In this document: piece by piece, positions 14,750 to 38,734 of the stretch
Layout: every line of letters starts with the position of its first letter
Position numbering within the stretch: the first letter of the stretch is position 1
IMG/VR virus record: IMGVR_UViG_3300030385_001682
Location: 1 to 38,734 of that record
DNA length: 38,734 nucleotides
Reading direction: 5' to 3' (one strand)
From: a virus
Made by a program: the position numbers and the translations under genes
Notes under the pieces: model-generated
The model's database searches: none
Seen by the model: the letters and a program-made list of their open reading frames with translations, nothing else
What the model was told of the DNA's origin: nothing

Positions 14750-15790
14750 TTATGGTGCAGGACATTCAGCAATTTCAGAACAATCTTTCCAATCAAATGT
14801 GTAATTAACACCTGCAAATTCATCACCTGCATTAAAACTGTTGGCAGGTAATTGGAAAAGTTTGTAATGTAAAAACAACTTGATAACATACTTTTCAGTA
14901 CAATCATCATAATGAACCTTCATGTCATAAGTCAACCCTGTGAATGGATCAGTAATTGTTCCATGCTCAAACACATCATTTCTTTTTGCATAAGAACCCA
15001 GATATTTATTCCAAGTCAGTAATTGATTGACATTTGGTGCTAACACTATAAAGTGACCTGCACCTGCAATTCCTTCAACAAATCTGTCATTATAATAAGC
15101 ATAATCATTCCACAGACTTAAATCTGTACCAACTGAAGAATTGCAACATGCAATTTCTGTTGATTTTGCATATAGATCAAAATTTCCTGATCCAATGATT
15201 AAAGGAACACCAACTGCACCAACTTCTTCATATTGATGTCTGATCTGTGCCATTGCAATTGATCTTGGTGCATTTTCAGGTGCATCAGTGAACAAAGGAA
15301 CTTCCTTCAATGATGTTCCATCAGCAAAATCACCAAAATTAGCACTTTGATCTGTAATAATTCTTTTGTCCAATTCAACATTGATAGCATTCATTTGTCC
15401 CATGACAATGTTTGAAATCCATGTTGCATCAGATTCGCACAATTTTCGCATTTCATCTTCAGTAAAGATCAACCCCTTTGTACTTATACAGTCATCAACT
15501 GCAACCTTTTTTTCAAATGGTTCTTGTTCAACAGAACCTGTACAATCTAATATTCCAGAACAATCTTCATCAATGTTGGATGCAATACCCCTTTGATAAA
15601 ATTTGATCAATGTTTCTTTATATTTTCCATCAGATGGAACAGGTATCTTTTCAATGCCATCAGTATTCAAATTTGACAACAATGCATCAAGATATCCAAC
15701 ACGATCCCTTTTTAATGCAGGTGCATTTTTTCCTGCAACATCATTTAAGTATGTTTGGAATGCTTCACATAATCCTTGTGTAAAAGCCAT
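14750..15790 (-). CDS. Major capsid protein
   Basis: The protein has 346 residues from MAFTQGLCEAF. It shows the pattern I recall from Bacteroidota siphophage capsid proteins: N-terminal GLCEAFQTYLND and LKRDRVGYLDAL, then FTEDEMRKLCE, IVMGQMNAINVELDKR, and ATW near the spine helix. The middle contains GAVGVPLIIGSGNFDLY, and the C-terminal part holds DCTEKYVIKLFLHYKLF. It ends in ECPAP. The scaffold-like gene lies directly upstream. The start at 15790 begins the conserved MAFTQ. The frame is open to 15853, but that extension has no family counterpart. Confidence 0.85.
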   Translation of the reverse strand: MAFTQGLCEAFQTYLNDVAGKNAPALKRDRVGYLDALLSNLNTDGIEKIPVPSDGKYKETLIKFYQRGIASNIDEDCSGILDCTGSVEQEPFEKKVAVDDCISTKGLIFTEDEMRKLCESDATWISNIVMGQMNAINVELDKRIITDQSANFGDFADGTSLKEVPLFTDAPENAPRSIAMAQIRHQYEEVGAVGVPLIIGSGNFDLYAKSTEIACCNSSVGTDLSLWNDYAYYNDRFVEGIAGAGHFIVLAPNVNQLLTWNKYLGSYAKRNDVFEHGTITDPFTGLTYDMKVHYDDCTEKYVIKLFLHYKLFQLPANSFNAGDEFAGVNYTFDWKDCSEIAECPAP

Positions 15791-15913
15791 AATATAGTTA
15801 TTTAATTTTTTTAAATTAATGTTTCTAAAACAGATTTTGGATTCCCATCCCAATGATCATTTTAGGTATGATGATCAACATACAATTAGCATTTTTGGTT
15901 GCTATACCACAGG
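15791..15913 (-). promoter_or_regulatory. 123-bp noncoding leader upstream of the major capsid gene
   Basis: No supported gene lies here. It contains a 7-bp perfect inverted repeat (TGATCAT at 15854-15860, ATGATCA at 15871-15877, 10-base loop) and an AT-rich stretch up to the capsid ATG. Abundant capsid messages often have their own promoter or stabilising hairpin, and either role is possible. I see no clear TAnnTTTG box. Confidence 0.45.
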
Positions 15914-16750
15914 TCAAAGTGATGTCAATCCACCATGTGTCTTCATCTCTTTTAATCTTTCAGCATTTTCTTTTGCCTTCTGAAGATGTGGTAGGTGGAA
16001 TTTATTTTCAACTTCACTTTTGTTTTTTACGTTTAAGGTCTTAAATATTGCCTTTGATGTGTTTTCAACATCACCATTTGACTGTTTAATTACCTTCATT
16101 TCATTTAGATAGCCATCAACAATTTGATCCAATGTCTGAACTGTTGTTCCTTCTTTGTCTAATGGATTAAGACCATCTTTTGTTTTGATCTGCAATGCAT
16201 CATCATCACCAAGACCAATGGAATAATTCTTATCAAGATATGATTGGACTGATGGATAAAGAATTTCTGAATCCACAATCAAGGATTTTTTGTTCAATAT
16301 CTTCCTGATCTTCATTTCTTTCTTATAGTCAGAAAGTTTTGTTTGTCCTTTTGTCTGAATGTCTGGAATGATCTTGTCTTCAAATTCCTTCACCTTTGAT
16401 CTTAATTCAATCAAATCATTTTGCAATGTTTCATTGACATCAGTCTTTTCACCCCTTAATTTGTCAATAGCCAGAACAATGATTTCATCAAACTTCTTGT
16501 CTTTGATTTCTTCAGATGTCAAACCAAATGCCTTTTTGATCTTATGTTCAATCTGTGACAACTCTTTTCCTTGTATTTCTTTCTTTAATGGATTGATGAC
16601 TTCTGGATTGTTGATAAAAACATCTTTGAATGATGTTTTAAAGCCATCTGACAGGTCTTTGACTTCAATGTCATCTTCACCCTTCAATTGGTCAATTGCA
16701 TCACCTGTGACACCAATTTCCTTCAAGAATTTTTCTGTGTTAGAATTCAT
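15914..16750 (-). CDS. Probable scaffolding protein
   Basis: The protein has 278 residues and is almost entirely helical and highly charged. It has a central coiled coil at about residues 100-140 (LIELRSKVKEFEDKII) and a basic C-terminal region (LPHLQKAKENAERLKEM). The order portal, Mu F-like protein, scaffold, major capsid is the classical head module. Scaffold proteins guide capsid assembly through such C-terminal basic helices and are then removed. No protease gene is visible nearby other than the HExxH domain of the Mu F-like protein. Confidence 0.72.
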   Translation of the reverse strand: MNSNTEKFLKEIGVTGDAIDQLKGEDDIEVKDLSDGFKTSFKDVFINNPEVINPLKKEIQGKELSQIEHKIKKAFGLTSEEIKDKKFDEIIVLAIDKLRGEKTDVNETLQNDLIELRSKVKEFEDKIIPDIQTKGQTKLSDYKKEMKIRKILNKKSLIVDSEILYPSVQSYLDKNYSIGLGDDDALQIKTKDGLNPLDKEGTTVQTLDQIVDGYLNEMKVIKQSNGDVENTSKAIFKTLNVKNKSEVENKFHLPHLQKAKENAERLKEMKTHGGLTSL

Positions 16751-16977
16751 TTATTCCTTTTTTTCACTGTCTTCTTTTTAGCTTTTTTCTGTGGTGTTGG
16801 TTTTGGTTTCACTTCTGCCTTCACCTGTGGTTGTGGTTTTGCCACCACTTTTTTTGGTTCTTCAATTATATCAAGATGCCTGTGTTTGTCCTGTTTCTTC
16901 AAGATACTAAAAGCCAAAGATGTCAAATTAATGATCCTTCCTGTCTTCAAATTCTTTACCTTAACATTAGTCATCAT
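16747..16977 (-). CDS. Small protein with Pro/Lys-rich tail, 76 residues
   Basis: The first 40 residues are ordered (VKVKNLKTGRIINLTSLAFS). The rest is a Pro/Lys/Ala low-complexity tail ending in KKKTVKKRNK. A TATATTTG box is 2 bases before the ATG, so a transcript from it would have almost no leader. The gene overlaps the scaffold start by 4 bases. Role unknown; it lies inside the head gene cluster. Confidence 0.72.
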   Translation of the reverse strand: MMTNVKVKNLKTGRIINLTSLAFSILKKQDKHRHLDIIEEPKKVVAKPQPQVKAEVKPKPTPQKKAKKKTVKKRNK

Positions 16978-17012: not shown

Positions 17013-17261
17013 TTAATTATCCACAAACTTCACATTCAGGACATAAATAAGATCATCTTCATCCCTTTTGTACTTGCCATTAAATTTAATTATTCTTCCT
17101 TCTGCTTCAAGCAAAATTAAATATAACCCCCTTGCACCTTCAAACTGAAGATAATCCATTGGATCATCTTCCTTTGGAAAATTCATTATATATTTGGCAT
17201 AAAGATTTTCAAAATTCTCAAAATTAAAATCTGGATATTGTTTTCCTTTTACTGTTATCAT
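17013..17261 (-). CDS. Hypothetical small protein, 82 residues
   Basis: The protein is acidic, with ITVKGKQYPDFNFENFENL at the N-terminus and a Gly-Arg-rich turn (GARGLYLILLEAEGR) before a final beta strand. No family is recognised. It overlaps the end of the Mu F-like gene by 4 bases and precedes the head genes, so it is probably a small head-associated protein. Confidence 0.72.
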   Translation of the reverse strand: MITVKGKQYPDFNFENFENLYAKYIMNFPKEDDPMDYLQFEGARGLYLILLEAEGRIIKFNGKYKRDEDDLIYVLNVKFVDN

Positions 17262-19519
17262 AAGCCATTAATACTTTTATATTGATCTAACATCAATTGA
17301 TATAATTCAGGATTTTCATCCCTAAAAATTGGATTGCCTTGCCAAAAATTTTCTGCTGAATGCACATAAAATTCAAACCTTCTGGCAGAACCACCATGTT
17401 TTGAAAAATATGATTTTGGATGACCACTTCCATGATTGGAATTACTTAATGCCATAATTGTATCAGAATAACTTCCCAAGAAATTGAACAATTGCTTTCT
17501 TGTATAAATACCTTTATATTTTGCTTCATAGTCATTTATTGTACCCCATGCACCATGCTTCAATCCACCAAATTTGTATTTTAGTCTTAACTTTGCAGTG
17601 TCTGATGTGTCTGCTATATATTTAACTGTCCTGTCATCATCTTCCTTTACCTGTTTTTTATATAACTTCCTGCTTTCAAGATAATTGTCTTCATATTCTT
17701 GTTTATATATTTTTAAACCCCATTTTCCACCAATCAATTTTTTTGGTTTATCATGTGGATAAGGTAATTTTATTATCTTTTTTGTTTTTGGATGAATATA
17801 ATGTTGTGGAATCCATTCCCTTTTTGCAAATTGCTTTTCTTGTGCATGTGACATTTCATGGATCATCACAGTTTTCCGAATTGATGGATCATCAAAAACT
17901 GCAATATTAATAAACAATTCATTCTTTGCAGGACTAAAAAATGCAGGTCTACCCCTTTTGTTTTTTGTATCAACATCAATGGTTGGCATAGATGGTGAAC
18001 CCTTTTTGTCAAACAATTCCCAATATTGATCTGGCAGATTATCCAATTCAGGATTGTCAATCAATGCCTTTGGTTTTGACCTTTTGCCACCCCATCCTGT
18101 CACTTCATTTTTCCTGTCATAAGTCAAATCCATATATTTTGATGCAGGAACATCTGCCATGTTTGTGTCTTCTTTAACCTTCTTTTCAATTTCAGTTTTG
18201 TATTGTTTACTGTCATATCTTTTCCGTTCTCTGGTGGTCATTCTGAAAGGTATTGCAGTATGTCTGCAATTATATCCACCCCTGAAGACTGCAAAATTGT
18301 TTTCATTTGTTCCTGCAATCAATCCCTGCATTGGTGATCCATTCAAAAGTTTTGACAGGTCTTCTTTTAATAAGACACCCATTGCAACCCACCTTTTGCA
18401 CTGTGGTCTGGATGTTCCCTTCAGACTTCCAACATATTGATATGCATCAAGATTGTAATCCTTTGCCATCTGTTGGTTGATCATGCCATCATATTGGTTC
18501 AGTGAATCCCTTGCAATCTGTCCAACATAGGCAGAAAATTTTCCAACATCCTGATCATTACCTTCAATGAATGTTTTGATGGACTTTTCCATTTCATCAA
18601 TGGTGACACCTGCAACTGCATTTTTGAATAACTGTTCCCTGATAGGAACAACAAAGGCATCATTGACACCTGATCCTGTCAGACCTTGCAATGTGTCTTC
18701 AATCATCTGTTTTTTAAATGGTTCAACCAATTCTTCCATTGTCTTATTCTGCTCAACAGATTCAGGATAAAAGGAAAATTCATTCATGTCATTTCCATCC
18801 CATATTACTTCTGATGCCTTAACTTTTTGTTGAATAACTTTTCCATCTTTTGATTCCAAGTCTGCATATGTTTTTGATAATGAAATCCATTCACCTTGAT
18901 GAATTTTATCAATGCCATCTTTTGGAATCCCCCTGTAAATGGTCACTTCACCATCTGGATCACCTTTCATCTTTTTTATGACATCCCAAGATTCCTTATA
19001 TGAATCTGCAATTCTTTTATCTTTTGCATTAAAATTTGCATATAATTCAGGTCTTGAATAAAAGTCTTCAGGAATCAAGTCACCACCTTTTGTCATATCA
19101 GATAAATTGGTATTAAAATCATCATCTTTAGACATCTGATGTGCCACCTTTTCAGATTCATAAGGAAGACCATTGACTTCATGTTGGATTTTTTCCTGAT
19201 GTTTCTGAACCTGATCAAAACTTTTCAGATACTTTTTCACATCTTTCAGGTATGTGTCATCAGAATTTCCTGCCTTCCCTGTTCTGATTTCATTTAAGAT
19301 TGCTTTGTCAAGGGAATTGATTGAATTCAATGTGTTTTCATCAACATCAACTTTGCCATCTTTGACTGTGAATTGTGCCATGTGTTTTTTCACCAACTTG
19401 AACACATTCCTTTCATATGATGACATATTTCTTAACATCATTTTATCCTGATCAGTGATAAATTTAATGTTTGTCCTGATCAGTTTTAAGATACTTCCAT
19501 CAGACCATCTTCTGTTCAT
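17258..19519 (-). CDS. Three-part head protein: ADP-ribosyltransferase-like, Mu F-like and HExxH domains
   Basis: The protein has 753 residues. An ADP-ribosyltransferase-like region covers about 190-250, with VTIYRGIPK (Arg196), then EWISLSKTYAD and GNDMNEFSFYP (Glu247). Phage polyvalent-type ART domains share this R-S-E order. A Mu F / SPP1 gp7-like minor head domain covers about 290-430, with QCKRWVAMG (Cys374) and GGYNCRHTAIPF (Cys418, His420), the usual C-terminal motif of that family. Residues 549-564 contain HEMSH (His554, Glu555, His558), a zinc-metallopeptidase motif. The C-terminal region is basic and aromatic. Neighbours are the portal upstream and the scaffold downstream, so this is the minor head protein, packaged on or in the capsid. 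The enzymatic parts could be injected and act on host proteins, or the peptidase could process the head. Both are inferred. Confidence 0.82.
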   Translation of the reverse strand: MNRRWSDGSILKLIRTNIKFITDQDKMMLRNMSSYERNVFKLVKKHMAQFTVKDGKVDVDENTLNSINSLDKAILNEIRTGKAGNSDDTYLKDVKKYLKSFDQVQKHQEKIQHEVNGLPYESEKVAHQMSKDDDFNTNLSDMTKGGDLIPEDFYSRPELYANFNAKDKRIADSYKESWDVIKKMKGDPDGEVTIYRGIPKDGIDKIHQGEWISLSKTYADLESKDGKVIQQKVKASEVIWDGNDMNEFSFYPESVEQNKTMEELVEPFKKQMIEDTLQGLTGSGVNDAFVVPIREQLFKNAVAGVTIDEMEKSIKTFIEGNDQDVGKFSAYVGQIARDSLNQYDGMINQQMAKDYNLDAYQYVGSLKGTSRPQCKRWVAMGVLLKEDLSKLLNGSPMQGLIAGTNENNFAVFRGGYNCRHTAIPFRMTTRERKRYDSKQYKTEIEKKVKEDTNMADVPASKYMDLTYDRKNEVTGWGGKRSKPKALIDNPELDNLPDQYWELFDKKGSPSMPTIDVDTKNKRGRPAFFSPAKNELFINIAVFDDPSIRKTVMIHEMSHAQEKQFAKREWIPQHYIHPKTKKIIKLPYPHDKPKKLIGGKWGLKIYKQEYEDNYLESRKLYKKQVKEDDDRTVKYIADTSDTAKLRLKYKFGGLKHGAWGTINDYEAKYKGIYTRKQLFNFLGSYSDTIMALSNSNHGSGHPKSYFSKHGGSARRFEFYVHSAENFWQGNPIFRDENPELYQLMLDQYKSINGL

Positions 19520-21203
19520 CTAAATTCAGGGTTTTATTTGCCTTTTCTTTATCCAGATATTTCTGCATTCCTTTGTCAATATTGTCAAAAATAAATTGCA
19601 ATTCATTTTCCAGAAAATGTGTTCCTTCAACTGCAATGATTTCCATTAATGTCTTATAAGCAAATAATGATTTCAAGATGTCTTCATTCTGAATTGTTCC
19701 AGATGCCAACAACATGGTTTTTTCCTGAACTGTAAGGTGGAAAATAGGATCATAAGAAACAAGGATTTCAATGATTCTTGGTTGTGTCACTGATCCACTG
19801 AATCTTTTCCTTGCCAAGTCTTTTGTTGTTTCCAGAAGAAATGCCACAGGAACATTTTTTGACTTCATTTCATTAATTTCACTGATCAGATCACTTTCTG
19901 TTTTTATGGTGAAATCAATTGGTTTCTGGATGTTAGGTTCAAAAGGATCAGAAAGGTTTCGGTATTTTTCAATGAATATCAATGACTTGTAAATGATTTC
20001 ATCAAAAATGTTGTTGCTGATCTTAATCAAAAATGAATATTGTTCTTCCCTGTCAATTGCCTTTGCCACCCCTGACTGTGCTTCAACAACATGAAGAAGA
20101 TGCAATGATTCTTCTGCCTTCTTCAGTAAATCCTGCCATGCTTCACCACTGTATTTGATGATGTCAACAGGTGGACTGATGAACCTGACCACAGGATCAG
20201 TCAAATTGGTGTTCCCATCCAATGCAGGATTGGATTTTGCCCTGATAAAAACACCATAAGGACTTCTGTTGATGATATAACCTGTGCCATTACATTTTGA
20301 ACAGGTTGCAGTGTCACCAGATTCAACATCAAGGATCAATCCTGATCTGCACTTTGGATGATCACAATCTTCTGCAACTTCTTCCCTGTATGGAAATGCA
20401 CTCATGGTCATAACACCTTGCCAATCAGAATATTGTCTTATGCTTTCATTGGCAAAAGGAAGGAATGGTGAAAAGTATGAAACAAAATAATCATCTTCAG
20501 TGATGTTGCCACCCAAAGTGATGGCAGGAATCATGTCAAAATTGTGTTGATAGATTTCTTCTAATTCATAAGCATTCTTTGATGCCTTTTCTTTTTCAGT
20601 ATGTCTGTATATATGTGTTTTTGTCAGTGTATAATAAACCTTCCCTTTTACATCCACACCACCCTGATTGATTAAAACACTTTCATTTGGTTGATAAAAG
20701 GTGATGTGATCATCATCCATCTGGACAATGTTACTGCTATAAACCAACACAGGTTTCACCTGAACCTTTTCTGATGGATTGGTCAGACCTTCACCTGATG
20801 GTAACCACACCAGAAGACCATTGGCATCTTCAATCATCCTTCTGACAACAAACTTCTGGATATAAGAATAAAAATATTGACCTGTGAATTTCTTCACTGA
20901 CAGGTAATCATCAAGATCAGGATTGATCTGAATGCTGAAATTGGCACTTTGGAAGATTCTGTATAAGGTATCAATTGCCCTGTTGATTGAACCTGTGGTG
21001 ATTGGTTCATATATGCTCAACCTGTATTTATACAATGTCTGATCTTCATTTGGTCTTCTTTCAGACAAAATCTTTTCTGGCAGTGAACCCCTTGTGTGAA
21101 CAAACATATTTTGCATGGCATCAATCCATTCCTGTTTGTGTTCAGGTTCATCCAGATTAAGAAATTCCTGATTGTATTTAATGATGTCAAATTCTTCTTC
21201 CAT
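19500..21203 (-). CDS. Portal protein with zinc-ribbon insert
   Basis: The protein has 567 residues. Portal features include an N-terminal acidic helix, PITTGSINRAIDTLYRIF, a long middle with FSPFLPFANESIRQYSDWQG, and a C-terminal helical tail (LLKKAEESLHLLHVVEAQSGVAKAID, then the DNA-facing helices). Residues 280-304 hold Cys280, Cys285, Cys301 and Cys304 (CDHPKC, CSKC, then NGTGY), a DnaJ- or rubredoxin-like zinc ribbon inside the wing region. The portal forms the dodecameric DNA channel at one capsid vertex. It overlaps the Mu F-like gene by 20 bases, the usual portal/minor head pairing. Confidence 0.85.
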   Translation of the reverse strand: MEEEFDIIKYNQEFLNLDEPEHKQEWIDAMQNMFVHTRGSLPEKILSERRPNEDQTLYKYRLSIYEPITTGSINRAIDTLYRIFQSANFSIQINPDLDDYLSVKKFTGQYFYSYIQKFVVRRMIEDANGLLVWLPSGEGLTNPSEKVQVKPVLVYSSNIVQMDDDHITFYQPNESVLINQGGVDVKGKVYYTLTKTHIYRHTEKEKASKNAYELEEIYQHNFDMIPAITLGGNITEDDYFVSYFSPFLPFANESIRQYSDWQGVMTMSAFPYREEVAEDCDHPKCRSGLILDVESGDTATCSKCNGTGYIINRSPYGVFIRAKSNPALDGNTNLTDPVVRFISPPVDIIKYSGEAWQDLLKKAEESLHLLHVVEAQSGVAKAIDREEQYSFLIKISNNIFDEIIYKSLIFIEKYRNLSDPFEPNIQKPIDFTIKTESDLISEINEMKSKNVPVAFLLETTKDLARKRFSGSVTQPRIIEILVSYDPIFHLTVQEKTMLLASGTIQNEDILKSLFAYKTLMEIIAVEGTHFLENELQFIFDNIDKGMQKYLDKEKANKTLNLDEQKMV

Positions 21204-30543: not shown

Positions 30544-30855
30544 TTATGGTTTATTACTTTGAAATGATTGATTGTCCATCTGCTTTTCCTGTGCCTTTGC
30601 TTTTTCATCAATGATCTTCACATAGGTGTTGATGGTGGAATAATATTCATCAATGTTCAGGTCTTCCATTGCTTTGATTTCACTTACTTTGTTTTCACAC
30701 ACCATCTGGTTCAAATAATTAATGTCATCAATGTATTTTATTATTTCATGCCTTGCAATAATTTTAGCAATATGTCTGATTGGTCTTTGTTTCTGATCAA
30801 ATAGTCTTTTATATCTTTGTCTGACATATTTCCATAATTTGTTGTGTATTGCCAT
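30544..30855 (-). CDS. Second tail-assembly chaperone-like frame (frameshift extension)
   Basis: The frame has 103 codons from an internal ATG. It starts with a basic segment (KYVRQRYKRLFDQK) and ends in a helix and a QSFQSNKP tail. It overlaps the upstream frame by 115 bases and lies in the -1 frame to it. The -1 frame is open from the U9 run at 30865-30873 through this ATG. It may therefore be made mainly as the C-terminal part of a frameshift fusion, the gpGT type, rather than alone. It ends 2 bases before the tape measure gene. Confidence 0.75.
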   Translation of the reverse strand: MAIHNKLWKYVRQRYKRLFDQKQRPIRHIAKIIARHEIIKYIDDINYLNQMVCENKVSEIKAMEDLNIDEYYSTINTYVKIIDEKAKAQEKQMDNQSFQSNKP

Positions 30856-31292
30856 GCCTTTTGCAAAAAAAAAGACTTGGCATCATTATCCCTGTCCAAT
30901 ATTTCTTTCTTCTTGTCCTGCCAATTGGAATTCATCTGTTTAATGTCTTCACCTTCCAGAATGAAATAACAACATGCCAGATCAATCAAGGTCTTTTCTT
31001 CACATATGTATTCCAACCTGTATTCCAATTCTTTAAGCATGTGGAACATATCCACAATCTTCCCTTTGTCTGCAAATTCCTTCATTGCACCAATGGACTT
31101 CTGCAATGTTTCCTTTGTGATGTTCATGGATGACCACTTGGTTGCAACTTCACCTGCAATTGCCCTTCTTGTTGGTAATGATAGCATGTTCTGGAATTCA
31201 AACCACCTGTTGCCATCAATATCCTTGTAACATTCCACCAGATCAAGGTCTGTTCCTTCAGGTTTCTTCTTTTTATTGAATAATGTGATCAT
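30741..31292 (-). CDS. Tail-assembly chaperone-like protein (gpG-type), 183 residues
   Basis: The protein is helical and acidic, beginning MITLFNKKKK and containing WFEFQNMLSLPTRRAIAGE and a Cys pair (LACCYFIL, near 107). Its place is the tail-assembly chaperone slot, immediately upstream of the tape measure protein. The codons around Ser140-Phe142 form TCT followed by U9, a slippery stretch. Reading there in -1 continues into the next frame, giving a predicted 249-residue fusion. I set the start at 31292, where the ATG overlaps the previous stop (ATGA). A longer frame opening at 31343 would overlap that small gene by 55 bases. Confidence 0.75.
   Translation of the reverse strand: MITLFNKKKKPEGTDLDLVECYKDIDGNRWFEFQNMLSLPTRRAIAGEVATKWSSMNITKETLQKSIGAMKEFADKGKIVDMFHMLKELEYRLEYICEEKTLIDLACCYFILEGEDIKQMNSNWQDKKKEILDRDNDAKSFFLQKAWQYTTNYGNMSDKDIKDYLIRNKDQSDILLKLLQGMK
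30865..30873 (-). promoter_or_regulatory. Predicted -1 ribosomal frameshift site (U9 run)
   Basis: The message reads TCT TTT TTT TTG in the zero frame at codons 140-143 of the chaperone-like gene. A slip of one base back continues as TTT GCA AAA GGC ATG and joins the second frame without a stop. Phage tail chaperones classically use such a slip to make a long fusion. A single missing base in a homopolymer of the assembly would look the same. Confidence 0.65.
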
Positions 31293-31417
31293 TTGCGTTT
31301 CCTTTTTGTGGTTTTCTTCCCTTTTTTGTTCTGTGAATAGCATATTGCATAAGAATCAGACTTCTTTTTGCCTGACTTCAGCAACTTTTGGACACATTGT
31401 TCAACTTTTAAAGGCAT
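31289..31417 (-). CDS. Small basic protein after terL, 42 residues
   Basis: The frame has 42 codons: MPLKVEQCVQKLLKSGKKKS, then YAICYSQNKKGKK and a Lys/Arg tail. Its stop makes an ATGA overlap with the chaperone-like gene start and it begins 11 bases after terL. Short basic proteins with a Cys-x-x-K helix are common beside terminase genes in Bacteroidota phages. Function unknown. Confidence 0.6.
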   Translation of the reverse strand: MPLKVEQCVQKLLKSGKKKSDSYAICYSQNKKGKKTTKRKRK

Positions 31418-37951: not shown

Positions 37952-38657
37952 TTTTTCTGTTTTTAAGCCAATTCAATGTTGTTAGATAAACGGATTTATA
38001 TTTTTTAGTCAATCCATTATGATTTTCCATGTTCAACCAGACCTGTTCAATATCTTCAGGAAGAAAGTTTTCTTCCAATTTCTGGCACTCTGTTTCTGTC
38101 AACTGATTTTCTAATTTTGAAATGTTGACCATCTTTTCCATTACAGAATTTAATCTTTCATCTATAAAAGCTAAATTTCTTTTTTTAATATTTTTTTTCT
38201 TTAAAGACATAGCAGAAGAAGAAGAAGAAGAAAGGGTTGATTTTTGGTTGACCTTTTGGTTGTTGTTTTGCTTAACCAACCCCTTAACCAAATTAGGATT
38301 GCCACCCAACTTGCCAGATTCCTTTCTAACCATACGGATGTGTTCATCCTTGACCATTCTGTCAGAATAATACCTTCCATTTTTATCTTGTTTTAGTATT
38401 GAATATTGGATCAATTCTGAAAACACTTTTTGGAATTTTTTAGGACTTAAATTGGTCAAAACCTGGATTTTTTTCTTATCTAATGGAACATTTCCAACAA
38501 TAAGAACACCCCTTTCTGGTGATTTATGCATCCAACAAAGAAGATCAATCCACACCCCTTTTGTATCATAGGAACACATCTTCAATGATAGGTCATTAAG
38601 CCAATCAGAAGGATAAAATTGAAAGGAAGGCAATTTGTCTTGTTTATCCTTCTTCAT
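37896..38657 (-). CDS. DnaD-like winged-helix replication initiator, 253 residues
   Basis: The N-terminus contains SFQFYPSDWLNDLSLKMCSY, then GVWIDLLCWMHKSPERG. This is the winged-helix start seen in phage replication initiators of the DnaD/Lin1244 type (a Y-P-x-D-W helix followed by a G-x-W-I-D-L-L helix). A Ser-rich linker (about residue 142, encoded by a TCT microsatellite at 38214-38235) leads to a basic C-terminal part with LEENFLPEDIEQVWLNMENH. It probably marks the replication origin or loads host enzymes. The gene spans the join of the circular map. Confidence 0.78.
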   Translation of the reverse strand: MKKDKQDKLPSFQFYPSDWLNDLSLKMCSYDTKGVWIDLLCWMHKSPERGVLIVGNVPLDKKKIQVLTNLSPKKFQKVFSELIQYSILKQDKNGRYYSDRMVKDEHIRMVRKESGKLGGNPNLVKGLVKQNNNQKVNQKSTLSSSSSSAMSLKKKNIKKRNLAFIDERLNSVMEKMVNISKLENQLTETECQKLEENFLPEDIEQVWLNMENHNGLTKKYKSVYLTTLNWLKNRKNDKKTNNKESFDQQIQGW

Positions 38658-38734
38658 AATGTGAATTTATAGGTCTGTCTGGACAATATTTTATGCAATT
38701 TATTGAATCTGGCATCCCTTTTTTTCCTTTTGCC
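38563..38734. repeat. Right copy of imperfect 172-bp terminal direct repeat
   Basis: This copy matches 1-172 in length and order. The six differences fall into codons of the initiator gene (a Glu/Asp change and a silent Pro change) and the helix-turn-helix gene (Leu to His from two changes, Lys to Asn, and one silent Phe change). Substitutions that respect both open frames argue for natural variation rather than sequencing noise. Confidence 0.9.
38654..38734 (-). CDS. Partial tandem helix-turn-helix gene: C-terminal 26 codons
   Basis: The frame enters at the right edge and ends at the stop overlapping the initiator start. It encodes the end of the protein at 92-475, with His where that copy has Leu and Asn where it has Lys. 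It is the same gene seen across the join, not a second locus. Confidence 0.85.
   Translation of the reverse strand, partial: GKRKKRDARFNKLHKILSRQTYKFTL

What the first reader, a model, noticed from the sequence alone, without database searches (positions are those of the whole stretch)
17258..19519. Head protein with ADP-ribosyltransferase-like, Mu F-like and HExxH parts in one chain
The minor head protein next to the portal combines an R-S-E type ADP-ribosyltransferase region (Arg196, Ser213, Glu247), a Mu F-like head domain with its Cys/His motif, and a metallopeptidase HEMSH motif at 554-558. Proteins that combine several enzymatic domains in the head may be injected with the DNA. No separate capsid protease is evident, so the HExxH part could process the head, or both enzymes could act on the host.
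Basis: partly seen in the sequence, partly recalled or inferred. Interest (0 to 1): 0.75.

Follow-up and report, generated by a model that had tools for sequence, protein, structure and literature searches.

The report
Phage head protein carrying toxin cassettes
This phage builds two enzyme-like parts into a minor protein of its DNA-filled head, one of them paired with a small neighbouring gene that looks like its antidote; relatives swap that enzyme-antidote pair while keeping the head protein, which suggests weapons delivered together with the phage DNA.

Summary
ORF 17258-19519(-), 753 aa, next to the portal, has R196, S213, E247, the MuF motif RGGYNCRH (413-420) and HEMSH (554-558). Comparison with 80 relatives shows how it is built. 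The MuF head core is conserved. Residues 428-753 are a swappable C-terminal gluzincin (M90/polyvalent-MPTase type; H554, E555, H558 and E716 invariant). It is followed, with a 4-base ATGA overlap, by an 82-aa gene. Across relatives the effector type and the small-gene type always change together (zincin A/ORF A 29, zincin B/ORF B 20, no crosses), bare MuF proteins have no such ORF, and near-identical cores carry different cassettes. This is a MuF polymorphic toxin-immunity locus. Residues 121-261 are a separate insert found only in this phage. They belong to a very common phage domain family (phrog_2579, mislabelled 'ParB C-terminal') that no Pfam or NCBIfam model covers. Its conserved R-S/T-E pattern and AlphaFold model point to an ADP-ribosyltransferase-like fold, but similarity to solved ARTs is weak. 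A head-maturation role for the zincin is unlikely: relatives lack it. No integrase was found in 18 records, whereas MuF toxins were reported only from temperate phages. No activity was measured.

The parts
17258..19519 (-). 753-aa MuF-type minor head protein with two extra domains
   Evidence: ORF; MuF2/PF06152 sub-threshold match; start overlaps the portal gene end
19160..19519 (-). N-terminal arm, residues 1-120, shared with bare MuF relatives
   Evidence: alignments; arm before the core is 112-118 aa in most complete relatives
18737..19159 (-). nested ART-like insert, residues 121-261 (phrog_2579 family)
   Evidence: absent from all 80 relatives and from 17 relative records; PHROG E=1.4e-19; AlphaFold pLDDT 89
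18932..18934 (-). Arg196, putative ART strand-1 arginine
18881..18883 (-). Ser213, S/T in 96% of the family
18779..18781 (-). Glu247, 99% conserved, putative catalytic glutamate
18239..18736 (-). MuF core, residues 262-427
   Evidence: 42-60% identical to 75 fetched relatives
18260..18283 (-). MuF motif RGGYNCRH, residues 413-420
   Evidence: near-invariant in relatives
17258..18238 (-). C-terminal swappable gluzincin effector, residues 428-753
   Evidence: A9 alignment; Peptidase_M90 in 17/19 members, MPTase-PolyVal in 7/19; model; fold search
17846..17860 (-). HEMSH, residues 554-558
   Evidence: H, E, H invariant in 19 relatives
17372..17374 (-). Glu716, predicted third zinc ligand
   Evidence: invariant; lies in the later helix of the model
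17013..17261 (-). 82-aa candidate immunity (antidote) gene, ATGA overlap with the MuF stop
   Evidence: homologous to the ORF after zincin-B relatives; absent after bare MuF genes; overlap
16747..16977 (-). conserved small 'KTG' gene that directly follows MuF in bare relatives
15914..16750 (-). probable scaffold gene, conserved in relatives
   Evidence: order and similarity in relatives; no PHROG function hit
14750..15853 (-). probable major coat protein (likely ATG at 15790), 44% identical in L002
   Evidence: assignment by gene order
19500..21203 (-). portal protein
   Evidence: phrog_7376, E=2.2e-13

Best explanation
The protein is a MuF2-like minor head protein that serves as carrier for two enzymes. 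(1) Its C-terminus is a gluzincin effector, encoded together with the small gene immediately downstream as a toxin-immunity cassette that is exchanged as a unit between related phages. The small protein is made from the same late operon by translational coupling and keeps the protease harmless while the phage is produced. (2) Between the N-terminal arm and the MuF core sits an independent ART-like domain of the phrog_2579 family, whose relatives lie in standalone phage proteins and large polyvalent-type proteins. The chain is packaged at the portal and enters the next cell with the DNA. The zincin then cleaves host or rival-element proteins (or releases the domains), and the ART-like domain modifies a host molecule with NAD+. 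Shown here: domain boundaries, homology, conservation, cassette co-variation and swapping. Inferred: packaging, injection, enzymatic activity, targets and inhibition by the small protein.
For: Bare relatives define the MuF scaffold. Effector and small-ORF types: C0/M0 29, C1/M1 20, C2 or C3/M2 4, bare/none 12, no crosses; dereplicated 15 vs 15, Fisher p=1.3e-8, not corrected for phylogeny. On the core tree effector and small-ORF types each need at least 17 changes; 4 of 4 well-supported independent pairs go the same way (sign test p=0.125, only four pairs). L196 and L190/L194 have 98.1% identical cores but different cassettes. P0002 vs the L142 ORF: 0 of 5000 shuffles as good. ATGA overlap. 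Zincin: M90 in 17/19 members, HExxH helix and E716 helix, best PDB matches minigluzincins. ART-like: conserved R, S/T, E; confident model; top nine PDB matches are CNFy, ExoS and ART2.2 chains. Kin L147 carries zincin B plus a classical ART, PF03496 E=4.7e-21. MuF toxins with downstream immunity genes are established (PMC5576092, PMC11699363), and MuF-ART head proteins are described (PMC9503650).
Against: No activity, packaging or injection data. ART assignment: PDB matches have E>=0.2 and low TM-scores, and profile-profile comparison with classical ARTs gave nothing, though that test also failed between two accepted ART families. Zincin subtype L181/L195/L208 and effector L167 lack the small ORF. 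The ART-like insert has no antidote gene of its own. Apparently non-lysogenic phages have less obvious need of immunity.
Confidence: 0.68

Rival explanations
1. The zincin is a self-processing or domain-release protease that cuts this chain in the head or after entry, as proposed for polyvalent MPTases (P1 DdrB), and the small ORF is a chaperone or regulator of that cleavage.
For: Zincin domains are the commonest domains of polyvalent proteins and are proposed to release their partners (PMC5512222). Here the zincin shares a chain with an ART-like domain.
Against: Nearly all zincin-bearing relatives have no second effector to release, and the zincin is exchanged for an ART-like domain with its own small ORF.
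Confidence: 0.17
2. The zincin is the head-maturation protease of the phage, cutting scaffold, portal or coat.
For: No S78 prohead protease in 18 records; position between portal and scaffold.
Against: Bare relatives keep portal, scaffold and coat but have no zincin; others replace it by non-proteases.
Confidence: 0.04
3. The ART-like insert is not an enzyme but a binding or structural module unrelated to ARTs.
For: Weak structural matches, no profile support, hydrophobic residue in place of the first Glu/Gln of the usual ExE, family His222 replaced by Glu here (also in the nearest relative L247).
Against: Invariant polar residues at R-S-E positions across very diverse hosts of the domain; the nine best PDB chains are ARTs or CNFy; relatives often lie beside ART-PolyVal domains (9 of 48).
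Confidence: 0.25
4. The small ORFs are not immunity genes but assembly chaperones matched to each C-terminal domain.
For: They are tiny and translationally coupled, and no inhibitory activity is known.
Against: Bare MuF proteins need none; the layout matches tested MuF toxin-immunity pairs (Bxa/Bsi, PMC11699363).
Confidence: 0.2

Closest known systems
MuF polymorphic toxins (Jamet et al. 2017, PMC5576092)
   Same: MuF head protein, exchangeable C-terminal toxin domain (20% metallopeptidase, 14% ART in that survey), small ORF just downstream as presumed immunity gene.
   Different: Diverged MuF2-like carrier; no integrase found in 18 records, whereas toxin-bearing MuF genes were reported only in temperate phages; an extra effector-like domain nested upstream of the MuF core.
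Bxa/Bsi/BAH of Bacteroides stercoris prophage (PMC11699363)
   Same: MuF-type N-terminus, ART toxin, adjacent small immunity gene; related carriers bear other toxins.
   Different: There the ART is the C-terminal toxin; here the C-terminal toxin is a zincin and the ART-like part is an insert of another family.
Polyvalent proteins (Iyer et al. 2017, PMC5512222)
   Same: Several enzymatic domains in one virion-type protein, with zincin-like peptidase and ART as common partners; the insert's relatives sit in such proteins.
   Different: Swappable antidote cassette; insert not of the H-Y-D ART clade and matching no Pfam LPD or ART-PolyVal model.
phrog_2579, 'ParB C-terminal domain'
   Same: The insert is a clear member.
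   Different: Family is not registered in Pfam or NCBIfam, and its label is not supported; it looks ART-like.
Peptidase_M90 (MtfA) and minigluzincins such as selecase
   Same: HExxH plus later Glu; sequence match in most relatives, fold match to selecase/jannalysin.
   Different: The window sequence itself is below the M90 cut-off; fused to a MuF protein, with large insertions.

Membership tests
MuF polymorphic toxin | N-terminal MuF-superfamily domain encoded in the packaging/head module | tested here: met
   PF06152 matches, all below cut-off, in this and most related ORFs; gene lies beside portal and scaffold
MuF polymorphic toxin | variable C-terminal toxin domain on a conserved carrier | tested here: met
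   five C-terminal classes or none on one MuF core; 98.1% identical cores with different cassettes
MuF polymorphic toxin | cognate small ORF immediately downstream | tested here: met
   P0002 and homologs co-vary with zincin B; absent after bare MuF genes
MuF polymorphic toxin | carried by temperate phages or prophages | tested here: inconclusive
   0 of 18 records with tyrosine integrase by two models, no resolvase over cut-off; records may be incomplete and other lysogeny routes were not searched
MuF polymorphic toxin | toxicity of the C-terminal domain, relieved by the immunity protein | not testable with these tools
   needs expression experiments
Zincin (gluzincin) metallopeptidase | HExxH plus a downstream Glu ligand in helices of a zincin core | tested here: met
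   H554, E555, H558, E716 invariant; helices in the model (pLDDT 72); minigluzincins top the PDB list at non-significant E 0.2-1.0
Peptidase_M90 (MtfA) | match above the Pfam cut-off | tested here: inconclusive
   window sequence E=0.029, below cut-off; 17/19 relatives match, L147 above cut-off
ADP-ribosyltransferase, R-S-E clade | conserved Arg, Ser/Thr, Glu in order | tested here: met
   the first residue of the usual ExE pair is hydrophobic
ADP-ribosyltransferase, R-S-E clade | ART fold | tested here: inconclusive
   good model; best PDB matches are ART-fold chains but E>=0.2, TM about 0.3
ADP-ribosyltransferase, R-S-E clade | match to known ART profiles | tested here: not met
   no Pfam or NCBIfam ART model, no profile-profile match; the control shows low power
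ADP-ribosyltransferase, R-S-E clade | NAD+-dependent activity | not testable with these tools
   biochemistry needed
Polyvalent protein | two or more unrelated enzymatic domains in a virion-type protein | tested here: inconclusive
   zincin well supported, ART-like domain probable

The most novel reading that the evidence does not exclude
The phrog_2579 domain is a new, very widespread family of phage-injected ADP-ribosyltransferases, and this group of non-integrating phages uses MuF toxin-antidote cassettes not for lysogen competition but against rival phages or cells, stacking a nested ART and a swappable protease in one injected head protein.
Probability: 0.35. Interest if true: 0.78.

Novelty: new variant of a known kind. 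Interest (0 to 1): 0.62.

Why it matters
It gives a clean natural experiment, with the same head protein bare, with two zincin types, with ART-like domains, or with a nested insert, for asking what head-carried enzymes do after entry and why a phage without a detected integrase keeps antidotes. It also draws attention to a domain family that is abundant in phages, absent from the main domain libraries searched and probably misnamed, so that it is likely to be missed in surveys of phage ADP-ribosyltransferases.

Tried and rejected
Head-protease reading: rejected because relatives lack or replace the zincin. 'ParB C-terminal' label: no Pfam model, ParB models included, matched the domain in more than one of 86 members at E<=0.1. 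Orotate phosphoribosyltransferase: five weak NCBIfam matches, best 0.0028, regarded as chance. PDB sequence search: nothing for the ART-like profile, chance hits for the whole protein and the zincin. Profile-profile comparison with classical ARTs: no signal; its first run used wrong reading frames for three sequences and was repeated; the control shows the test has little power. First alignment of relatives was too divergent for a scan, replaced by DNA patterns. Single-protein scans found few or no relatives. Genome scan for host prophages: none. An exact terminal-repeat test missed the imperfect repeat (corrected). The zincin query was typed with three wrong leading letters; it served only for leads. 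A 'MuF-like Cys motif' search in the ART-family ORFs found none because the expression was too narrow; Pfam finds PF04233 in 4 of 48.

Full report
WHAT IS THERE. The ORF at 17258-19519 on the minus strand encodes 753 aa. Its start overlaps the end of the portal gene (phrog_7376, 2.2e-13). PHROGs matches residues 125-258 to phrog_2579 with E=1.4e-19. Pfam gives only a weak PF06152 minor-capsid match (E=0.0039), but PF06152 is found below cut-off in the corresponding ORF of most related records too (16 of 18 records including the window). PF04233 does not match the window.

COMPARISON WITH RELATIVES. The portal led to sister phages at 55-58% identity, and an alignment of the MuF core led to 75 loci. 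The nearest useful comparison is L002: the same gene order, but a MuF protein of only 286 aa that aligns to residues 1-120 and 262-427 and lacks everything else. The window protein is therefore the head protein plus two additions: a nested insert (121-261) and a C-terminal extension (428-753). In the 81 MuF ORFs examined, the stretch before the core is at most 118 aa except in the window, where it is 261 (some relatives give shorter values because the profile match starts earlier or the contig is cut). Across 18 records phrog_2579 is found only in the window.

THE CASSETTE. C-terminal extensions and the small ORFs directly downstream were clustered separately. C0 (a zincin, for instance HESGH) goes with M0 (29 cases), C1 (the window's zincin type) with M1 (20), C2 and C3 (ART-like) with M2 (4), and bare MuF proteins have no such ORF (12). 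There are no crosses. After dereplication at 95% core identity 15 C0/M0 and 15 C1/M1 remain, Fisher p=1.3e-8, which ignores phylogeny. On a tree of the cores the effector type and the small-ORF type each need at least 17 changes. In the four independent pairs on well-supported branches the small ORF follows the effector each time; four pairs cannot reach significance by themselves (p=0.125). L196 (C1/M1) and L190/L194 (C0/M0) share 98.1% of the core, so the cassette has been exchanged on an almost unchanged carrier. Exceptions: three members of a C1 subtype (L181, L195, L208) and the single C4 case (L167) have no small ORF. In the window the small ORF (17013-17261, 82 aa) overlaps the MuF stop by ATGA and is homologous to the ORF of L142 (BLASTP 4e-7; 0 of 5000 shuffles).

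THE ZINCIN. In 19 aligned C1 domains H554, E555, H558 and E716 are invariant, with G697, G699, H700, H720, E723 and N724. Seventeen of 19 match Peptidase_M90, best 4.3e-9, and seven match MPTase-PolyVal; the window member itself is below cut-off. The AlphaFold model (pLDDT 72) has three strands, a helix with HExxH and a later helix with E716, which is the zincin core described for polyvalent proteins (PMC5512222). The best PDB matches are the minigluzincins selecase and jannalysin, probability up to 0.92, E 0.2 and higher.

THE ART-LIKE INSERT. tblastn found the domain alone in mycobacteriophages and vibriophages and within larger proteins of other phages. A degenerate DNA pattern stopped at 120 viral contigs, so the domain is common, and a variant found 24 more. 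It occurs in ORFs from about 100 to over 3000 aa, beside ART-PolyVal in 9 and Phage_Mu_F in 4 of 48 scanned ORFs, once with a portal domain. In 95 dereplicated sequences E247 is 99%, S/T213 96% and H127 91% conserved; R196 was part of the search pattern but is also invariant in the set found by tblastn. Pfam and NCBIfam have no model for it. AlphaFold gives pLDDT 89 and pTM 0.82 with R196 in a strand, S213 at the end of the next strand and E247 just before the last strand (residue = model position + 107). Against the PDB the first nine matches are CNFy, ExoS and ART2.2 chains, but with E between 0.2 and 1.1 and low TM-scores. ExoS and ART2.2 are ARTs; that CNFy contains an ART-like domain is from memory. 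Beyond the family itself, viral structures also list several annotated ARTs, again weakly. Profile-profile comparison gave nothing, but it also failed between minor-head ARTs and T4 ModB, so it does not count against. The family's His222 is Glu in the window; the nearest relative, L247 (43% identity), has the same, so this is a subtype and not decay. An ART-like fold is probable, not shown.

MECHANISM. Most likely the MuF core brings the chain into the head at the portal, the chain enters with the DNA, and the two domains act in the cell, the zincin on host or competitor proteins and the ART-like domain through NAD+. The small protein protects the producing cell. These steps are inferred. The nearest kin on the core tree, L144, L147 and L155, all carry C1/M1, and L147 also has a classical ART (PF03496, 4.7e-21) after its zincin, so a zincin with an ART-type domain in one MuF chain arose more than once. 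Self-processing by the zincin remains possible; head maturation by it does not fit the bare relatives.

COMPARISON WITH KNOWN SYSTEMS. MuF polymorphic toxins with downstream immunity ORFs were described in 2017 (PMC5576092), a Bacteroides MuF-ART toxin with two immunity proteins in 2024 (PMC11699363), MuF-ART fusions and polyvalent proteins in PMC9503650 and PMC5512222. This locus is a variant of that kind. New are the nested insert of an unregistered domain family, the scale of cassette exchange in one phage group, and the absence of a detected integrase in 18 records of 31-39 kb where toxin-bearing MuF genes had been reported only in temperate phages. The window has a 172-bp imperfect terminal repeat (166/172) and may be near complete.

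Noticed in passing
1-172 and 38563-38734: Imperfect direct terminal repeat, 166 of 172 bases identical, suggesting a near-complete genome or an assembly overlap with variants.
   Followed up: partly
L147:5481-6986: Near kin of the window protein with zincin B followed by a classical ADPrib_exo_Tox domain (E=4.7e-21) in the same MuF chain.
   Followed up: partly
L161, C-terminal 642 aa of its MuF ORF: 920-aa MuF protein with an ART-like C-terminus (FRGH, RSTS, EAE) and the M2 small ORF that is otherwise paired with a PARP-like C-terminus, so one small-ORF family goes with two effector types.
   Followed up: no
L181, L195, L208: Zincin subtype on the same carriers without any small ORF downstream.
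   Followed up: no
L167: MuF C-terminal extension of 295 aa of a different type, with a P-loop-like GGAGSCKTS stretch, and no small ORF listed in the 329-base gap.
   Followed up: no
L004:3632-5671: 679-aa protein ('DNA repair protein') in a P22-like head/injection gene cluster with the phrog_2579 domain and two further stretches that look ART-like (FHGSK, YHGTG).
   Followed up: no
30544-31343: Two overlapping small ORFs next to the tape-measure gene, possibly frameshifted tail chaperones.
   Followed up: no
L007:1223-1906 and L217:336-1196: In some mycobacteriophages the second gene, near the terminase, is annotated metalloprotease in several and VIP2-like toxin in another.
   Followed up: no
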